This document shows, piece after piece, positions 34,386 through 44,505 of a stretch of DNA of 64,000 nucleotides; positions within the stretch are counted from its first letter, which is position 1; each line of letters starts with the position of its first letter. The notes beneath the pieces are model-generated. The model did not search any database. It saw only the letters and a program-made list of their open reading frames with translations, and was not told the DNA's origin. Source of the DNA: Thomasclavelia ramosa DSM 1402 (GTDB taxonomy: Bacteria; Bacillota_I; Bacilli_A; Erysipelotrichales; Coprobacillaceae); assembly GCF_014131695.1 (NCBI RefSeq), contig NZ_CP036346.1, forward strand, positions 1,674,001 to 1,738,000, given 5' to 3'. Made by a program: the position numbers and the translations under genes.

Positions 34386-37300
34386 TTATAATTTATCTCC
34401 AATATGTTTAAATTTCTCTACAAAAGCAGATATTTTCTGAAATACTGTTTGCTTTTTTGTTAAATACCCTGGATTAAGTGGGCTCATTTTAGGTAATATT
34501 TCATTTAAATCTATACCATTTTCACTCGCATATTCTCTTTTCAATGAAACTAGAATATATCTCTTTGCAGCATCTACATTAAGTCCTTCCTCGTTGATTA
34601 ATTCCTCTGCTTCTCTTTTTTGCTCCTGTTGAGCAAACTCATAGAAGTCAGCAAGAATACTTACTTTATCCTGTATTTTATTTAAATCTGTTTGATTTAT
34701 AAAATCCACTATCAAACTTTCTTTAGCACGATTTTCTATACTAGAACGAATAATACGACGTATTTCATCAACTAATGTATCTTTGTCTTTTACATCTTTA
34801 TTCTTCTCATAAATTAATTCAAGAATATAATCCAAATTTATTTCTTGTGACTTTAATAAATCTATTTCAAAAATTACGTCATCCCAATTAACAGAAGACT
34901 TTTCTTTATCATTTCCTGCCCTTTCTCGATGAAGCCATTCGCGAATATCATTATATGTAGAACGATAATCTTGAATCACTCTCTCATCAGGAACAACTAT
35001 TTGTTGCATAGCAGCAATATCCTCATCACTTATATAATGAGTTGTTTTAAATTCTTCTATAGCTTTTTCATCATTTACATCAATCTTTTGTAATGCTCTT
35101 AGATTTGTAAATTCATCAAAGTTTTGAAGAATATTTTCAATTCTTAAATATTCACTAAACAATTTTGTAAATTCTTTTTTATCACTTTCTGTAACTATTT
35201 TATCAACATTTGGGAAACGAGTATTTAATTCATTAACTACATCAACATAACCACGTCGTGCTTCTCCTGTAGATATATCTGTGAATCCTTCCATGTATTC
35301 TTTATAATTATTTTCAAGTATTATATTCTTTGTGTTATCATCACCAAAGCATTTGATTGCAGCAATTGTAGCCTGTTCTAAATCTCTAAAAGTAACAATA
35401 TTTCCAAATGTTTTTGTAGAATCATAAATACGATTTGTTCTTGAGAATGCCTGTATTAACCCATGGTAACGAAGATTTTTATCGACAAATAATGTATTTA
35501 GTGTTGGGGCATCAAATCCTGTTAAAAACATACCAACTACAATTAAAAGATCAATTTCTTGATTCTTCACACGGTTAGCAAGGTCTCGATAATAATTTTG
35601 AAACTCTTTGCTTTCTACACTAAAATTAGTTTTAAACATCTTATTGTAATTTTTGATAGCTAACGTTAAAAATTCTTTTGCACTACTATCCATAGCAGTA
35701 GGTTCAAAGTTTTCATCAGCAATTTCTCCTATTGCATTTTGTTCTTCGTTTGCTGCATATGAAAATATAGTAGCAATTTTTAAAGGTTTTTCACTGTTTT
35801 TTTGTAAATCGTTGAGTGTTTCATAGTACAATTTTGCTGCATCAATACTACTTACAGCAAACATTGCATTAAATCCTTTTGCACCAATATGTCCACGATG
35901 TGTCTTAATTCTAAAATTATTTAAAATATATTGAGAAATCTCTCTAATTCTTTCAGGATGTAATAATGCTTCTTTAGTTTCTGCAGCAGATAATTTTTTC
36001 TCATCTTGCTCCATTTCGATAGATTTAAATTTAGGACGAACATCGTTGTAATCTACTTTAAATTTAAGAACTTTTTCATCTCTAATAGCATCTGTAATAA
36101 CATAAGAATGTAGTTCACTCCCAAATACAGAAGCAGTAGTCTCTGCACCTAATGCATTTTCAGGAAATATCGGTGTACCAGTGAATCCAAATTGATAATA
36201 TTTCTTAAACTTCTTCTTTATGTTTTTTTGGGCCTCACCAAATTGAGAACGGTGAGCTTCATCAAAAATAAAAACCACTTCCTTATTGTAAATTGCTAAA
36301 TTCACGTCACTTTTTATAAGATTATTTAATTTTTGAATTGTAGTTACAATGATTTTATTATCCTCTTTTTCAATATTTCGTTTAAGTCCAGCAGTACTTT
36401 CAGAGCCATTTACACTATCAGGCGAAAACTTTTGATATTCTTTCATTGTCTGATAATCTAAATCTTTTCTATCCACCACAAAAAACACCTTGTCTATAAA
36501 ATCAAGTTCTGTTGCTAAACGAGCAGCCTTAAAACTAGTTAAGGTTTTTCCTGATCCTGTTGTGTGCCAAATATAGCCACCGCTTTCTGTAGTACTCCAT
36601 TTTTTTAACTCATGCGCACTTTTAATTTTCCATATAATTCGTTCAGTAGCTGCTATTTGATAAGGTCTCATGACTAATAAGTTATTACTTGAATCAAAAA
36701 CAGAATATTGTAATAAAATTCTTAATATTGTATTTTTTTGAAAAAAAGTAGCAGTAAAATCTTTAAGGTCTTTTATTAAAGTATTATCAGCTTTTGCCCA
36801 ATTCATTGTAAAATCAAAGCTATTTTTATCTCTTTTTGTCGTATTTGCAAAATATCGAGTATCTGTTCCATTAGAAATAACACAAATTTGTAAATACTTG
36901 AATAGAGAATGCTCTGAGTTATAACTTTCTTTACTATATCTATTTACTTGATTAAATGCTTCTCTAATAGCAACTCCACGTTTCTTAAGTTCCACCTGTA
37001 TCAAAGGAAGACCGTTTACCAAAATAGTAACATCATAACGATTTGCTTGGGCTCCTGTTATTTCAAATTGTGAAATAACCTGCATTCTATTTTTGGTTAT
37101 ATCATCTTTATTTACAAGATAAATATTTTTTATATGACCATCGTCAAATACAAAATCATAAATATAGTTATTGTGAATTTTGCGAGTTTTATCTATATGG
37201 CTATCACTTGATTTATCTAAATATTCTTTACAGAATCTTACCCATTCTTCATCACTAAATACCACATTATTAAGTATTTGTAATTGTTCACGCACATTTT

Positions 37301-37493
37301 TAAGCATTGCTTCAGGGGTTGTTAACTCTGGTAAATATTCATATCCTTGATTTACTAAATCTTGAATAAACTCTTTTTCAAGAGAAGCTTCTGTTTGATA
37401 AATGGAAGCTTCTTCTCGTATAAGTGAATACTTTTCATACTTGTCGAGGACAATAAAGTTTTTTGATTCTACAATAGGTTTATATTCAAACAT
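34386..37493 (-). CDS. hsdR: Type I restriction enzyme, HsdR subunit
   Basis: 1035 residues from ATG 37493. AAGGAGG lies seven bases upstream, and the stop of the prrC-like gene is one base upstream. An N-terminal nuclease domain shows [19 protein letters not shown] (D..ExK centre). SF2 motor: [54 protein letters not shown] and AFSRTNRI. C-terminal helical domain binds the methylase core. HsdR translocates DNA and cuts at a distance. Last gene of hsdM-hsdS-prrC-hsdR. Intact. Confidence 0.94.
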
Positions 37494-37494
37494 T

Positions 37495-38655
37495 TTATTC
37501 CTCCTTCCAAAAGCCATAATTATTTATTAAGTGTTCAAGTAATAATTTTACTGTTTGTTTCTCTTGTGGCGTAGGCTCAGCTACAATTTCATTTGCTAGC
37601 GTGGAATGACTAGTGAACTGGATGATTCGATTATAATAAGCCTCTTTGTTTTCTGGTAAGAGTTCTGACCATCTTGGAAATCCTAAGAAACTAGCAGTTT
37701 TTTCATAAAGGTTTCTTAATAAAGTAAAATGAAATTTTTCTATATTATCATTTGCAACTGCCTCTTCAAGTATTGCTTTTAGATGTAAATGATATGAAAA
37801 ATTTTTATTGGAATCGCTTTTCTTTTCTGAAAGATCAAAAGTCCCATCTTCTAAACGTTCTAGCATATAACATTTTTTCTTATTTATTTCATTATATAAT
37901 ACATTATAAAATATAGGGTTATGTGTGGTAATAATAAATTTTAACTCAGATTCACTTTTCCTAATTACTTCCGCTAAATCAACTGCCATCTGAATCAAAT
38001 GATTATCATCTAATGAGGTTACTGGATCATCAATAAAAATATAATTTAAGTTGTCAAATTGATTTGTTTCTCTATCACTTTCCTCTACTACATTTAATAC
38101 GCTAACGACTTGTTCAAGCAATGCATAAAAAACACTCCATATAAAACAACTTTCTTCACCTTTAGAAACCTTAATATTGTTTGCAATTGAATTATTTCCA
38201 CGTTTATATGAAAATATTACTTCTGTAAAAGCATTTACGGTTATTTCTCTTTCATCGTTATTCTTAGTAGTATACTGAGAATTAAAACTTGGATTTAATT
38301 TATCATCTGTATAGTGTTGAAAAAATTTAACAACATTTTGATCTTGTCCTTGATCTTCAAAAATCCATTTTGTAAAAACATTGGGATGTATTTTAAGTTT
38401 TGGTTTAGCATCTTCTTTCAAATCATTATCCCAATAGAATAAATCTTCTGTAAAAGCATTGTAATAAAGGATTTTTTTGTTTTCCAAACCTGCATCTTCA
38501 GTTTCCTCTTGATCTATTTCAATTTTAGGAGAAACAAGTGCTTTAAATTCTCTTGAGAGCCTTGTCTTTCCGTTTCCATTAAATGCATAAATTAACTGCA
38601 CTTTTTTGTTATTATCTTTTAATTCCTGTGCGATTTCTTTTAAAGTCTTCCCCAT
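37495..38655 (-). CDS. prrC: PrrC-type anticodon nuclease
   Basis: 386 residues (E. coli PrrC: 396). N-terminal ABC-ATPase: [11 protein letters not shown], Walker A NGNGKT (26-31), signature VSKGEES, Walker [17 protein letters not shown]-loop TTHNP. C-terminal nuclease: Arg314-x3-Glu318 in LLRNLYEK and His350 in FTSHSTL. The spacing 4 and 32 is exactly that of the E. coli PrrC triad Arg320-Glu324-His356 (established knowledge). The gene sits between hsdS and hsdR as in the E. coli prr locus. There PrrC is held silent by the RM enzyme and, when a phage peptide disarms it, cleaves tRNA-Lys at the wobble base. Nuclease family firm; tRNA target inferred. Confidence 0.88.
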
Positions 38656-38657
38656 AT

Positions 38658-39824
38658 CTATACCTCAGCATTTATATTCTTAAACGTTAAAAGTTTATTC
38701 CTATAATATTCGTATTGTTTTTGTCTCTCCGCTATTTCAGCAGGAAGTCCTTTAGAAATATCGTTACAAAGTGTGTCAAAACGATCAAGAATGTCAACAA
38801 TACGTTGTTGCTCAGATAAAGATGGAAGCGGTACTATAATATCACCTAATTTACTTGGTGTGACCTCTATAACTTTTGTACCATGAGCTAGTTTTTTCTT
38901 ATCTTTAAAAAACATAGCAGTATGAAAATAATATGCAAGAAACTTTGCATTCTGATTGTGTTTGATTATTGCAGTGTGACCACTTATTGCAACTTTTTCC
39001 TCACCTAACCACACAACACATTTACAAACATCTTCTATATTTTCACTTGTAACAGCCATTATAATATCATTTGTATTCGCAAATTTAGATTTTTTTGCAA
39101 CATCTCCATCTATAAAGGTTATAGTTTTAGTAGCAGATAAACCATATCTTGTATATATTTGCCCATAATGAATACAAGGTATCCCCTTCTCTGTAAAATC
39201 TTTCTTTTGAAAATTACCACCTCTGATAATTGTAGCAATTTCCCTAAGCGGTTTCCTTTCAACATCATCACCAAAGGTAAGTAAGCTATCCCTATAATAC
39301 TCATACTGTTTTTTTCTTGCTGTAAGCTCTGCTGTAAGCTCTGCTGTAAGCTCTGCTGTAAGCTCTGTGAAATTATCCAAAATACGCACAATTTCCTCTT
39401 GTACTGGTAAAGGTGGGAAAGGAATTAATGTATTTTTAGCAGCACTCCAGTGACGAGTATATTTTCCAGTTGTCTTATAAAAATTAACAAAGCAATAGTA
39501 CAAGTATTTGCAATTAATATTTTTACTTGTCAATATTTTTATTCCATCTGCGCCTTGTGCAAATGGAAAATCGACATATTTTATTATCTCTGTATGATCT
39601 CCAAAAATTATATATTCATTTTTAGGAAATAATGCAGTTTTATCATTTGTATAACCACTTATGTAATCGCTACCTTGATTTATTACAGGATAATCACCTG
39701 TAATTAAAATATTTTTAGATAATATTTTAATTGATGGTGTATTAATTGTTACAAGTTTAAACAAAGGTTTCAAGACTACTCCATCAGGACATAATTCATT
39801 TATTAGCTCATTTAGTTTACTCAT
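38658..39824 (-). CDS. hsdS: Type I restriction enzyme, HsdS specificity subunit
   Basis: 388 residues with two target-recognition domains (about 10-150 and 190-350), each followed by a helical spacer: LPVQEEIVRILDNF..ARKKQYEYYRDSLL and LSEQQRIVDILDRF..RQKQYEYYRNKLL. Each domain reads one half of a split DNA target. The central spacer carries four copies of the TAEL tetrapeptide (about residues 153-169), the hallmark of the EcoR124 (type IC) group. The start directly abuts the hsdM stop (TAA then ATG). Recognition sequence cannot be read from the protein. Confidence 0.92.
   Translation of the reverse strand: MSKLNELINELCPDGVVLKPLFKLVTINTPSIKILSKNILITGDYPVINQGSDYISGYTNDKTALFPKNEYIIFGDHTEIIKYVDFPFAQGADGIKILTSKNINCKYLYYCFVNFYKTTGKYTRHWSAAKNTLIPFPPLPVQEEIVRILDNFTELTAELTAELTAELTARKKQYEYYRDSLLTFGDDVERKPLREIATIIRGGNFQKKDFTEKGIPCIHYGQIYTRYGLSATKTITFIDGDVAKKSKFANTNDIIMAVTSENIEDVCKCVVWLGEEKVAISGHTAIIKHNQNAKFLAYYFHTAMFFKDKKKLAHGTKVIEVTPSKLGDIIVPLPSLSEQQRIVDILDRFDTLCNDISKGLPAEIAERQKQYEYYRNKLLTFKNINAEV
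39319..39366. repeat. Four 12-bp tandem repeats in hsdS (TAEL)
   Basis: The 12-mer GCTGTAAGCTCT is repeated four times without change at 39319-39330, 39331-39342, 39343-39354 and 39355-39366. On the coding strand this adds Glu-Leu-Thr-Ala units. In EcoR124, two versus three units change the non-specific gap of the target from 6 to 7 bases (established). Confidence 0.95.
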
Positions 39825-41375
39825 TTATTGCACCTCGATTTCTGCAATTATCTCATCAATCTCAGTACGAAGTCTATCTATGTTAGCCACTGTTTTTTTA
39901 ATTTTAGCATTTAATTCAACTATATCGATAACTTCTCTTGTATCCTTAGCCTCAACATAAGTACTTACCGAAAGATTATAATTTTCTAATGATATCTCAC
40001 TATTATCTACAGATTTTGAAACATGATCGATATCTTTTTTATTAGCAAACAGCTCTAAAATAGCATTGATATGTTCTTCTGTTAAAATATTATTGTTTGT
40101 TTCTTTTTTGAAATAATCTTCACCACTTGCATCTATAAACTGAGTTTTAGTTTCCGTTTTGTGTTTTGAAAGCACTAATATATTAACTGCAATTGATGTT
40201 CCAAAAAATAGATTAGGTGCAAGTGAAATAACAGCTTCTACAAAGTTATTATCAACTAAATACTTTCTAATTTTTTGCTCTGCTCCACCACGATAGAAGA
40301 TACCCGGAAAACATACAATTGCTGCTCGCCCTCTACTTGAAAGATAACTTAATGCATGAAGCACAAAAGCAAAATCAGCTTTAGATTTTGGTGCAAGTAC
40401 CCCTGCTGGTGCAAAACGTACATCATTAATAAGAGTTGGATCACTGTTACCAATCCATGGTATTGAATAAGGAGGGTTTGATACGATTGCATCAAATGGT
40501 TTCTCATCTCCAAATTGTGGATTTAATAGGGTATTACCTAGTGCTATATTAAATTTATCATAGTTAACATTATGCAAAAACATATTCATACGAGCAAGAT
40601 TATAGGTTGTATGATTAATTTCTTGTCCAAAGAAACCATCTTCAATAATATGCTCATCAAACTGTTTCTTTGCTTGTAATAATAAAGAACCCGAACCTGC
40701 TGCTGGATCGTAAATTTTATTAATTGTAGATTGACCATGCATTGCAAGTTTTGCTATAAGTTTAGATACACTTTGTGGTGTAAAAAACTCTCCTCCAGAC
40801 TTTCCAGCATTAGCAGCATAGTTAGAGATTAAAAATTCATAAGCATCCCCAAATAAGTCTATTTGATTTTCTTCGAATTTACCAAAACTAAGCCCTTCAA
40901 CTCCCTTAATTACAGCTGCTAAACGACTATTTTTATCTTTAACTGTATTTCCTAGCCTATTACTTGTTGTATCAAAATCAGCGAATAAACCTTTGATATC
41001 TGATTCAGAAGGATATCCACTTGCAGAACTTTCAATTGCTGAAAATATCTTTGCTAAATCTGTATTCAAACTATCATTTGTGTTTGCATTTTTTGCAATG
41101 TTGCAAAATAATTGGCTGGGATATATAAAATATCCTTTTGTCTTAATTGCATCTTCTTTTATTTCTTTTGTAATAATACTATCATCTAATTCTGCATAGT
41201 TAATACTATCGTCCCCTCCTTCAATATAATTTGAAAAGTTCTCACTAATAAAACGGTAAAAAAGGGTTCCTAATACATATTGTTTAAAGTCCCATCCGTC
41301 AACTGACCCTCTGACTTCATTTGCTATTTTCCATATCTGTGATTGTAATTCTGCTCTTTGTGCTGCACTTGACAT
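39825..41375 (-). CDS. hsdM: Type I restriction enzyme, HsdM methyltransferase
   Basis: 516-residue N6-adenine methyltransferase. N-terminal helical domain (HsdM_N), SAM region [17 protein letters not shown], then catalytic [18 protein letters not shown] and ERGFFTPQ-like [10 protein letters not shown] precede. A C-terminal coiled helix ([17 protein letters not shown]) contacts HsdS. First gene of the four-gene operon, with CGGAGG ribosome site. No defect seen. It protects host DNA and with HsdS forms the scaffold that would keep the anticodon nuclease silent. Confidence 0.94.
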
Positions 41376-41832: not shown

Positions 41833-44505
41833 TTACCAATATATATTTAGATATTTCTTTGCCCTTGTTATAGCTGTATAAAATATATTATGAGTAATCT
41901 TTTCTTCACTGTCATCAGCTATTACAATCTTTACTGATTCATATTCTAAACCTTGTGACTTATGTATTGAAACAGCATATGCAATTTGAAATGGTAAAAT
42001 AGATTCATCATCGGTATTTTCATTATCGCTATCAAACGGCTTACTTCTACTAACGTAAAATCCAATAACAGTAGATTTCTTATCTTTTTTTATTAGATAT
42101 AAGCCGTCAGCAATATCTATTAATGATTCCGATAATACTATATCTACACTTATAGCAAAATATACTCTATCTTCCAAGTCATTTATATCCTCAATTCTGC
42201 CTTTTAAATTATTATAAAGTAATTCAAATCTTCCTGAATCATTAAATAATATAGGGTCATTTATTTTAAACTCATATATACCAATTTTAACTGCATTGTT
42301 TGGATTGTCTAGTTGAAGTAATTTATTGATATTATTTAAACCATAAAGCCCGTTATAATTTAAACAAAGAATAATCTCATCATCTGATTTACTAATAAAA
42401 ATTTCTTCATCAATTTTATGCGAATAATCATTTTTAACAATTTGTTCTAAAATTAAATTATTATTTTTTATTTCTCTTGTTTCTTTCCAAAGGTCTATTA
42501 AATTTTTGTTCTCACTTCTAAATGGCTCTGTCAGTTCACTTATTACATTATCATCAAATACATACTTACAAAGATTAAACCAGTTTCCTAAACCAATTGA
42601 TTCAATTTGATAGATATCACCTACTAATATTAGTATAGCATTATTGGTTTTATCTAAAATTTTAATCATATCTTCATTTTTTACTGTACTACACTCATCG
42701 ACTACAATTAAATCGTATTCTAGTAAACTATATGAGGGCTGGTTTATGAATTTATCAATTGTCATATAATCTGAATTACCATCATCATTTATTTTTCTTC
42801 TTAAATTATTTACTGCCGGATTAGTTTTTGCAATAAATAGTTTCTGCTTATCTTTCATTAAAAAAGAAACATAATTAATAAGAGTAGTTTTACCTGTTCC
42901 AGCAGCACCATAAATCAATCTAACTTTTGTTGATAAAAACATATTTTTTAATATTTCTTCTTTTTTTATATCATCTAATTCAACAATTTCTGTACTAGTC
43001 TTTAAACTATTAATTTTATCACTAGAAAATAGTTCATTTAATAGTGTCGTACTTTCTGAAAGTATTGTTAATTTTGCTATAATTTCTTTTATAGCATTTA
43101 ATTCACCTACCTTATATAAATACTTTTTATAGATTCCAATTTCACTAGCTGGTCGAAAGCCAGAATATAAAGAATCATTATATATCTTTATCAAACCTTT
43201 AATCTCATTCGTGTTTCCAAAAAAACTAAAATCTCCGATTGGTATAAAAATCTTATTCTCTGTAAAAGACTTTATATGAACTAATCTCGCAAGTAAATCT
43301 TCATGATAATTTTTTACATTAATACAATGATATAGGTCTGAAAGATTAGAGATATGTCTTTTAGGATTAAAAGAATATGGTTTTTTTTCAAAAGGATAAC
43401 ATTTTGCTGATAAAAACAAATCAGAAAATTCATTTTCTTTGCTAGTTGGCCATTGATCATGGATAAAAGAATTGTTCATACTAATTAGTATATACCTTAT
43501 TATATTTTTCCCATTTAAATTATTATTTGATATATTTCTTGACTTTCTCAATAATATTGCTATTGAAGATTGTTTTGATTTAGTAGTATTATCTAAATCA
43601 CTCATAAAATTATTAAACTCTTTATATGGTAGATCAATAACATCAACTAATGTAGCTCTCTTATCCTTTATATAATTCATTAGTAGTTTATAATCTTTGC
43701 TTCCTCTTTGAATATTAGTACTTATTTTTAAAATTTTAGCATAGTTATTTATCTCACAAGGTCTTATAGACACATGCCAATCAGTTATTAATCTAATGGG
43801 AAACTCAACTCCAAACATTGATATGGTAGTATCAAAAAATTCTAAAGCTACACAATAATTTTTAAATATGTCATATTTAGTAAAAGCCGTAATTCTATTA
43901 AATTTATTTTGCTTATCTGTTCCAGGTTCTAGTGTAACTTCAAAATAAGTATTTTGGTTGATAAAAAAAGGTTTAACAGCTCGAATATAATAATTATCAA
44001 AATTTTGAGTACTAATAGTAACCATATTTATTTTTTCAGCAACTTTTTCATAATATTCCTTTGTTTGAACATCTAAATCAGGCAAAAACAAATCGATATT
44101 TTGAACAATTTCCATTCCAAATCTAACTTTCATTAACTTTTTTAGTTCTAAAATATACTGATAATATTTTAATATTAATCTATCTGCACCATCTTCTGTA
44201 GGTGTAAAATGTGAAACAGATTTACTAAGGTATTTATGAAATATACTTATAAATTTATAATTTTTCTCACTTGCAAATTCTTTAGCAACATTTTTAACAC
44301 TTTTCATCTCATTAGGGTGTAAATCTAACCAAAGTTTTAAAGCAATATTGTCATTGAGATTTCGAACTATAGATAATATTCGTATTGCTACTTCACCTCT
44401 ATTACTTTTATTAAAAGATAGTAGAGCTTTATCAATAGCGTTGCTTGCTTTTATAATTTCACTATCTGTATCATTTAATATTTGTCGAGTTTTATTATCC
44501 ATCAT
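41833..44505 (-). CDS. SF1 helicase with uncharacterised N-terminal half
   Basis: 890 residues. Residues 1 to about 500 have no motif I recognise. The C-terminal part is a superfamily 1 (RecD/Pif1-like) motor: LIYGAAGTGKTTLINY (Walker A 533-540), IVVDECSTVKNEDM (Walker B near 601-606), VGDIYQIESIGLG (motif III), AVSIHKSQGLEYESVKIV (motif V/VI region) and YTAITRAKKYL. It stands 457 bases upstream of the type I RM operon in the same direction, which suggests a defence role. After the TAA at 41833-41835 the same frame stays open for 29 more codons to 41743, so the C-terminus may be cut by a recent nonsense change. Confidence 0.75.
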   Translation of the reverse strand: MMDNKTRQILNDTDSEIIKASNAIDKALLSFNKSNRGEVAIRILSIVRNLNDNIALKLWLDLHPNEMKSVKNVAKEFASEKNYKFISIFHKYLSKSVSHFTPTEDGADRLILKYYQYILELKKLMKVRFGMEIVQNIDLFLPDLDVQTKEYYEKVAEKINMVTISTQNFDNYYIRAVKPFFINQNTYFEVTLEPGTDKQNKFNRITAFTKYDIFKNYCVALEFFDTTISMFGVEFPIRLITDWHVSIRPCEINNYAKILKISTNIQRGSKDYKLLMNYIKDKRATLVDVIDLPYKEFNNFMSDLDNTTKSKQSSIAILLRKSRNISNNNLNGKNIIRYILISMNNSFIHDQWPTSKENEFSDLFLSAKCYPFEKKPYSFNPKRHISNLSDLYHCINVKNYHEDLLARLVHIKSFTENKIFIPIGDFSFFGNTNEIKGLIKIYNDSLYSGFRPASEIGIYKKYLYKVGELNAIKEIIAKLTILSESTTLLNELFSSDKINSLKTSTEIVELDDIKKEEILKNMFLSTKVRLIYGAAGTGKTTLINYVSFLMKDKQKLFIAKTNPAVNNLRRKINDDGNSDYMTIDKFINQPSYSLLEYDLIVVDECSTVKNEDMIKILDKTNNAILILVGDIYQIESIGLGNWFNLCKYVFDDNVISELTEPFRSENKNLIDLWKETREIKNNNLILEQIVKNDYSHKIDEEIFISKSDDEIILCLNYNGLYGLNNINKLLQLDNPNNAVKIGIYEFKINDPILFNDSGRFELLYNNLKGRIEDINDLEDRVYFAISVDIVLSESLIDIADGLYLIKKDKKSTVIGFYVSRSKPFDSDNENTDDESILPFQIAYAVSIHKSQGLEYESVKIVIADDSEEKITHNIFYTAITRAKKYLNIYW

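What the first reader, a model, noticed from the sequence alone, without database searches (positions are those of the whole stretch)
39319..39366. Four TAEL repeats in hsdS: slippage-variable recognition spacer
Four identical 12-bp units encode the TAEL spacer between the recognition domains. EcoR124 alleles with two or three units recognise targets with gaps of 6 or 7 bases. Four units predict a gap of about 8, and gain or loss by slippage keeps the frame but changes the target. Combined with the PrrC-like guard, a specificity switch could be risky or useful for the cell.
Basis: partly seen in the sequence, partly recalled or inferred. Interest (0 to 1): 0.65.

Follow-up and report, generated by a model that had tools for sequence, protein, structure and literature searches.

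The report
Repeat-length ruler in guarded restriction system
A bacterial DNA-defence enzyme carries a short repeated stretch that works as a ruler for its DNA target; the repeat is real and of a known kind, its length equals the classical three-repeat form, and close relatives that carry the same suicide-guard gene have gained or lost one repeat unit in nature.

Summary
The array is real: a perfect 50-bp, period-12 run at 39318-39367, in hsdS of a complete hsdM-hsdS-prrC-hsdR locus. Between conserved anchors the spacer is 32 residues. EcoR124I-like HsdS (two TAEL) has 28; three-TAEL forms have 32. So the methylated bases should lie 8 bp apart (gap usually N7), not "four units, gap 8". Among 85 central spacers from the held loci, lengths fall only in steps of four (42 at 32, 39 at 28, 1 at 24, 3 at 20), none longer. 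Slippage is well supported in relatives but untested for this allele, which has no second copy in the sequences searched. Two Klebsiella plasmids differ over about 9.95 kb of a prrC-linked locus by two substitutions plus one exact 12-bp unit; an E. coli pair shows the same 3-versus-2 change with prrC open. The switch is therefore compatible with an intact prrC gene. The mechanism is textbook type IC biology. What I did not find in print is natural repeat-number switching under PrrC.

The parts
39318..39365 (-). Four in-frame 12-bp units GAGCTTACAGCA (ELTA x4 = three whole TAEL); perfect period-12 run extends to 39367
39294..39389 (-). HsdS central conserved region, 32 residues from VRILD to RKKQYEYY (residues 146-177), inside one predicted helix 139-181
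38703..38798 (-). HsdS C-terminal counterpart, 32 residues VDILD..GLPAEI..RQKQYEYY (residues 343-374), no repeats, predicted helix 336-379
38658..39824 (-). hsdS, specificity subunit, 388 aa; Methylase_S x2; best solved relative EcoR124 HsdS 7bst_A (E 4.3e-49)
37495..38655 (-). prrC homologue, 386 aa, anticodon nuclease; triad R314 (37714-37716), E318 (37702-37704), H350 (37606-37608)
   Evidence: (PADLOC PrrC E 4.5e-143); triad from PMC2610378
34386..37517 (-). hsdR, 1043 aa, with EcoR124_C domain; overlaps prrC end by 23 bp
39825..41375 (-). hsdM, 516 aa

Best explanation
This is a type IC restriction-modification locus with an embedded PrrC guard, of the EcoprrI kind. The 12-bp array encodes part of one long helix that joins the two target recognition domains and sets their distance. 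At 32 residues it is the three-TAEL length and should place the two methylated adenines 8 bp apart (usually N7). Replication slippage that adds or removes a unit keeps the frame and moves the target by 1 bp per unit; loss of one unit should give 7 bp (N6). Shown here: array, length class, locus, triad residues, and natural one-unit changes in prrC-linked relatives. Inferred: the interval of this enzyme, that slippage is the cause, and that this allele slips.
For: HsdS, HsdM, HsdR (EcoR124_C) and PrrC families. Spacer 32 = three-TAEL L138, L139, L141; EcoR124I-like L137, L142 = 28. Review passages: two TAEL gives N6 (methyl interval 7), three gives N7 (interval 8 for EcoDXXI and EcoprrI) (PMC3874165). 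Lengths step by 4 residues only. Units within a locus are identical far more often than between loci: 66% of 186 pairs against 12% of 12,217 pairs, 0 of 5000 shuffles reach it, and 1.4% expected from each locus's own codon use. Same-allele pairs: L187/L188 differ by 12 bp and 2 substitutions in 9,952 columns; L134/L143 hsdS by 12 bp and 4 substitutions. Model: array lies inside helix 139-181, partner helix 336-379. Published variation: NgoAV LEAT 1 vs 2 gives N6 vs N7 (PMC6789123); M. pneumoniae 12-bp repeats vary between passages (PMC4537597).
Against: No second copy of the window's allele, so no variation seen here. Same-allele relatives with equal copy number exist too: 5 of 7 same-allele pairs (>=97% outside the spacer) did not differ, and two of those five may be the same genome held under two ids. 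Within-locus identity of units may partly be inherited, not recent. No methylome; half-sites unknown, so the N count could differ from 7 even if the methyl interval is 8. The structural model has pTM 0.63, so domain placement is not precise to one base pair.
Confidence: 0.82

Rival explanations
1. Fixed ruler: the array is a stable structural spacer in this lineage. Its perfect repetition is a relic of descent and of selection for helix and length, and it does not switch at any useful rate.
For: 5 of 7 same-allele pairs kept their copy number. 32 and 28 dominate, and nothing exceeds 32 in 85 spacers, which suggests strong selection on length. The array codons are alike across phyla.
Against: Two same-allele pairs differ by exactly one unit. 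Own-codon-usage control: 1.4% expected identity of units against 65% seen.
Confidence: 0.35
2. One reading: four TAEL units, gap of about 8 bases.
For: Four 12-bp units at DNA level. Some type IC targets are written N8 (NgoAV truncated form, PMC6789123).
Against: Anchor-to-anchor length equals three-TAEL HsdS, not one unit more. The N8 case of NgoAV is a truncated HsdS with a different half-site.
Confidence: 0.1
3. Recombination seam: the near-identical DNA of the array across phyla serves mainly for exchange of recognition domains between hsdS genes by homologous recombination.
For: One count per locus, 52 loci: GAG 42, CTT 41, ACA 46, against CTT in 9 of 52 at the neighbouring leucine and GAG in 19 of 44 at the neighbouring glutamate. 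The exact 48-bp array occurs in a viral contig with other recognition domains.
Against: The window genome has no other hsdS as partner. An array of about 50 bp is short for homologous recombination. Not tested by breakpoint mapping.
Confidence: 0.2

Closest known systems
EcoprrI (prrA-prrB-prrC-prrD of E. coli)
   Same: Type IC R-M with prrC embedded; three TAEL according to the review (PMC3874165, passages); the gene order hsdM-hsdS-prrC-hsdR is that of the annotated E. coli prrC loci fetched here; PrrC about 61% identical to enterobacterial PrrC
   Different: Different recognition domains and host phylum; window PrrC is 386 aa against 396-399 aa, with a shorter N-terminal region
EcoR124I / EcoR124II hsdS pair
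   Same: 12-bp TAEL units set the spacer; 28 and 32 residues between the same anchors
   Different: No prrC in the EcoR124-like loci fetched; the first spacer unit reads ALTA and the last ELNM, whereas all four window units are ELTA
NgoAV hsdS of Neisseria gonorrhoeae (LEAT repeats)
   Same: Four-residue repeat number changes the gap by 1 bp (PMC6789123, passages)
   Different: Also has a phase-variable poly-G that truncates HsdS; no PrrC mentioned in the passages read
Mycoplasma pneumoniae hsdS 12-bp repeats
   Same: 12-bp units in the first helical dimerisation domain, copy number varies between passages of one strain (PMC4537597, passages)
   Different: Copy numbers up to 33, broken hsdR, ten hsdS genes

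Membership tests
Type IC restriction-modification (EcoR124 family) | HsdR with EcoR124_C domain; HsdM and HsdS of the family | tested here: met
   PF12008 E 2e-69, TIGR00348, TIGR00497, Methylase_S x2; EcoR124 HsdS best solved relative
[quoted passage not shown]
   ELTA x4; type IC criterion stated in PMC10030836 (passages)
Type IC restriction-modification (EcoR124 family) | Bipartite target with the gap set by repeat number | not testable with these tools
   needs a methylome of the strain or a cloned-enzyme assay
PrrC-guarded type I locus (EcoprrI kind) | prrC between hsdS and hsdR, whole reading frame | tested here: met
   same order in L132-L136, L143, L187-L193 and L195-L198; L193 has one small extra gene between prrC and hsdR; L194 carries no annotation
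PrrC-guarded type I locus (EcoprrI kind) | Anticodon-nuclease triad Arg320, Glu324, His356 of E. coli PrrC | tested here: met
   R314, E318, H350 at the same spacing (triad from PMC2610378, passages)
PrrC-guarded type I locus (EcoprrI kind) | Silenced by the R-M complex and released by an anti-restriction factor | not testable with these tools
   needs a bench assay
Phase-variable type I specificity by slippage | Different repeat numbers of the same allele | tested here: inconclusive
   Seen in prrC-linked relatives; no second copy of the window allele found

The most novel reading that the evidence does not exclude
hsd-prrC loci are, as a class, slippage-switchable: the methyl interval moves between 7 and 8 bp while the suicide guard stays in place, so a cell can change its target without waking PrrC. 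The window allele would be one more such switch, in a distant Bacillota host.
Probability: 0.5. Interest if true: 0.55.

Novelty: new member of a known kind. Interest (0 to 1): 0.4.

Why it matters
The ruler itself is classical. The useful new point is the near-isogenic pair of prrC-linked Klebsiella loci that differ by one repeat unit: a natural experiment to ask whether a change of target strains or triggers a PrrC guard, and how fast such loci switch. It also fixes the counting rule: read the spacer between anchors, not by units in an arbitrary register.

Tried and rejected
Rejected: 'four TAEL, gap 8' (register error). Rejected: array as chance protein composition (codon controls). Looked for the same allele elsewhere and found none: 60 relatives, 315 genomes of the order, 9 of the genus by DNA, the 80 best loci of genome contigs, 9 viral loci. 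A PrrC search of 392 genomes of the phylum gave 30 with any match at E <= 0.001, of which only 3 (window included) are strong (E <= 8e-86); the rest are weak, probably ATPase matches, so it did not give a large prrC-linked set. Plasmid records did (105 records at E <= 1e-40; I fetched 10 of those rows, and had several others already). PDB by sequence gave no relative of PrrC. Phage records gave only short shared parts of an E. coli prrC-linked hsdS (3 records). Inversion-type switching: no second hsdS in the genome.

Limits of the length table: loci were fetched by similarity to the window HsdS, so family members of like spacer may be over-represented. Seven duplicate ids (L001-L003, L020-L022, L122) were dropped before counting. 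The class called C-terminal was set by a GLP-like motif and includes some repeat-free central regions (for example in L004, L006, L012, L034), which are also 32 long. The two switching pairs were noticed because their matches differed by 12 bp, so 2 of 7 is not a rate.

Full report
What is there. On the minus strand are hsdM (39825-41375), hsdS (38658-39824), a 386-aa AAA protein (37495-38655) and hsdR (34386-37517). Pfam, NCBIfam and PADLOC name them N6_Mtase/hsdM, Methylase_S, PrrC (E 4.5e-143) and hsdR with the EcoR124_C domain. hsdM and hsdS abut, prrC starts 2 bp after hsdS, and prrC overlaps hsdR by 23 bp. Residues R314, E318 and H350 of the PrrC homologue have the spacing of the E. coli triad Arg320, Glu324, His356 given in PMC2610378 (passages).

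The repeat. Tandem Repeats Finder gives 39318-39367, period 12, 4.2 copies, 100% match. On the coding strand it is GAGCTTACAGCA x4 with two more bases that fit the period; residues 154-169 are ELTAELTAELTAELTA. A pattern of two units occurs nowhere else in the genome, even with 3 mismatches. Given the amino acids and the codon use of 11 window ORFs, four identical units have probability 3.0e-4; the array uses GAG for Glu, which is 20% of Glu codons there.

Counting. The published convention counts TAEL: EcoR124I two (GAA N6 RTCG, methyl interval 7), EcoR124II three (N7); EcoDXXI and EcoprrI also three (N7, interval 8) (PMC3874165, passages and table). In the EcoR124 HsdS alignment the window has four residues more than the two-TAEL chain. 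In the held loci EcoR124I-like L137 and L142 measure 28 residues from VRILD to RKKQYNYY, and three-TAEL L138, L139, L141 measure 32. The window measures 32. The predicted methyl interval is 8 bp, and the gap N7 if the half-sites are of the usual kind.

Length classes. From 188 anchored segments, 85 were classed central: 42 of length 32, 39 of 28, 1 of 24, 3 of 20; the other 103 all have length 32. Without the window and the plasmid picks: 73 central, 35/34/1/3. So the window is at the upper limit seen, the same length as its repeat-free C-terminal counterpart. The AlphaFold2 model (mean pLDDT 86.9, pTM 0.63) has two long helices of nearly equal length, 139-181 with the array and 336-379. Best solved relatives by fold are type I S subunits: Foldseek puts EcoR124I 7bst_A first, E 1.5e-18; VIA-align gives Z 24.9 (rmsd 6.1, 361 aligned) to 1yf2_A and Z 21.5 (rmsd 4.8, 354 aligned) to 7bst_A.

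Turnover of units. In 50 loci with at least two ELTA units, two units of one locus are identical in 66% of 186 pairs, two units of different loci in 12% of 12,217 pairs; 0 of 5000 shuffles reached 66% (highest 24%). Leaving out the last unit of each array, it is 91% of 78 pairs. Codon bias of each locus predicts 1.4%; 45 of 50 loci exceed their expectation. Changed motifs spread through whole arrays (TTEL, TSEL, EAEL, EVEL). This fits duplication by slippage; inheritance of an old array could explain part of it.

Natural switches under PrrC. Klebsiella plasmids pK16744_2 (L187) and pRJA166c (L188) carry the same HsdM, HsdR and PrrC protein accessions. Over 9,952 aligned columns they differ by 2 substitutions (one inside prrC with the protein accession unchanged, one in a neighbouring gene) and one 12-bp gap that lies in the TAEL array: 28 against 32 residues. 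E. coli pRHB17-C14_2 (L134, 32) and the chromosome record of strain NCCP 15734 (L143, 28) have hsdS with 4 substitutions in 1,206 aligned bases plus the same kind of 12-bp gap, identical HsdM, 5 of 1,039 differences in HsdR and 1 of 396 in PrrC. Over all held HsdS, 7 pairs from different ids are at least 97% identical outside the spacer; 2 differ in repeat number and 5 do not. prrC-linked spacers of both lengths are common: 28 in L132, L133, L189, L192, L195, L196, L198 and 32 in L135, L136, L191, L193, L194, L032, L048, L073, for example; L012, L091 and L146, with a prrC match, showed no TAEL array there.

What follows. The locus is a type IC system with a PrrC guard, and the array is its ruler. 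A specificity change by one unit is compatible with an intact prrC reading frame in relatives. That slippage is the cause, that both members of each pair are active, and that PrrC stays silent during a change are inferences. For type IC systems, entry into an unmodified cell is eased by staged assembly (PMC12707154, passages), which may also cover a change of target.

Literature. Variable four-residue repeats and their effect on the gap are published (PMC3874165, PMC6789123, PMC4537597, PMC10030836; passages). I found no paper on repeat-number switching in prrC-linked hsdS: PrrC + hsdS + tandem repeat, 0 papers; PrrC + TAEL, only the review PMC3874165; anticodon nuclease + phase variation + specificity subunit, only the general review PMC12707154. 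The library is open-access only.

Not settled. No second copy of the window's allele was found, there are no reads, and there is no methylome. The 12.7-kb stretch has no full counterpart in the eight other genomes of the genus, so the locus looks acquired.

Noticed in passing
window 41833-44505 (-): Next to hsdM: an 890-aa SF1 helicase-like protein that matches PADLOC candidate PDC-S53 over nearly its whole length (E 1.4e-292); a second candidate defence gene in the same place.
   Followed up: no
hsdS arrays of 52 loci: The repeat's codons (GAG CTT ACA) are more alike across phyla than codons of the same residues next to it, although GAG and CTT are minor codons in this genome.
   Followed up: partly
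L133, L134, L143, L190: E. coli hsd-prrC loci sit beside Phd/Doc-like genes, as on P1-like phage-plasmids (recalled); L143 also has a terminase gene nearby; a gene annotated 3'-phosphatase lies beyond hsdR in L134, L143 and L190.
   Followed up: no
L177 7521-7568 (viral contig): The exact 48-bp array occurs in a viral contig inside an hsdM-hsdS-hsdR locus with other recognition domains and no prrC between hsdS and hsdR.
   Followed up: partly
L136, L187, L188, L196, L198: Klebsiella hsd-prrC loci have a DUF262-domain gene next to hsdM.
   Followed up: no
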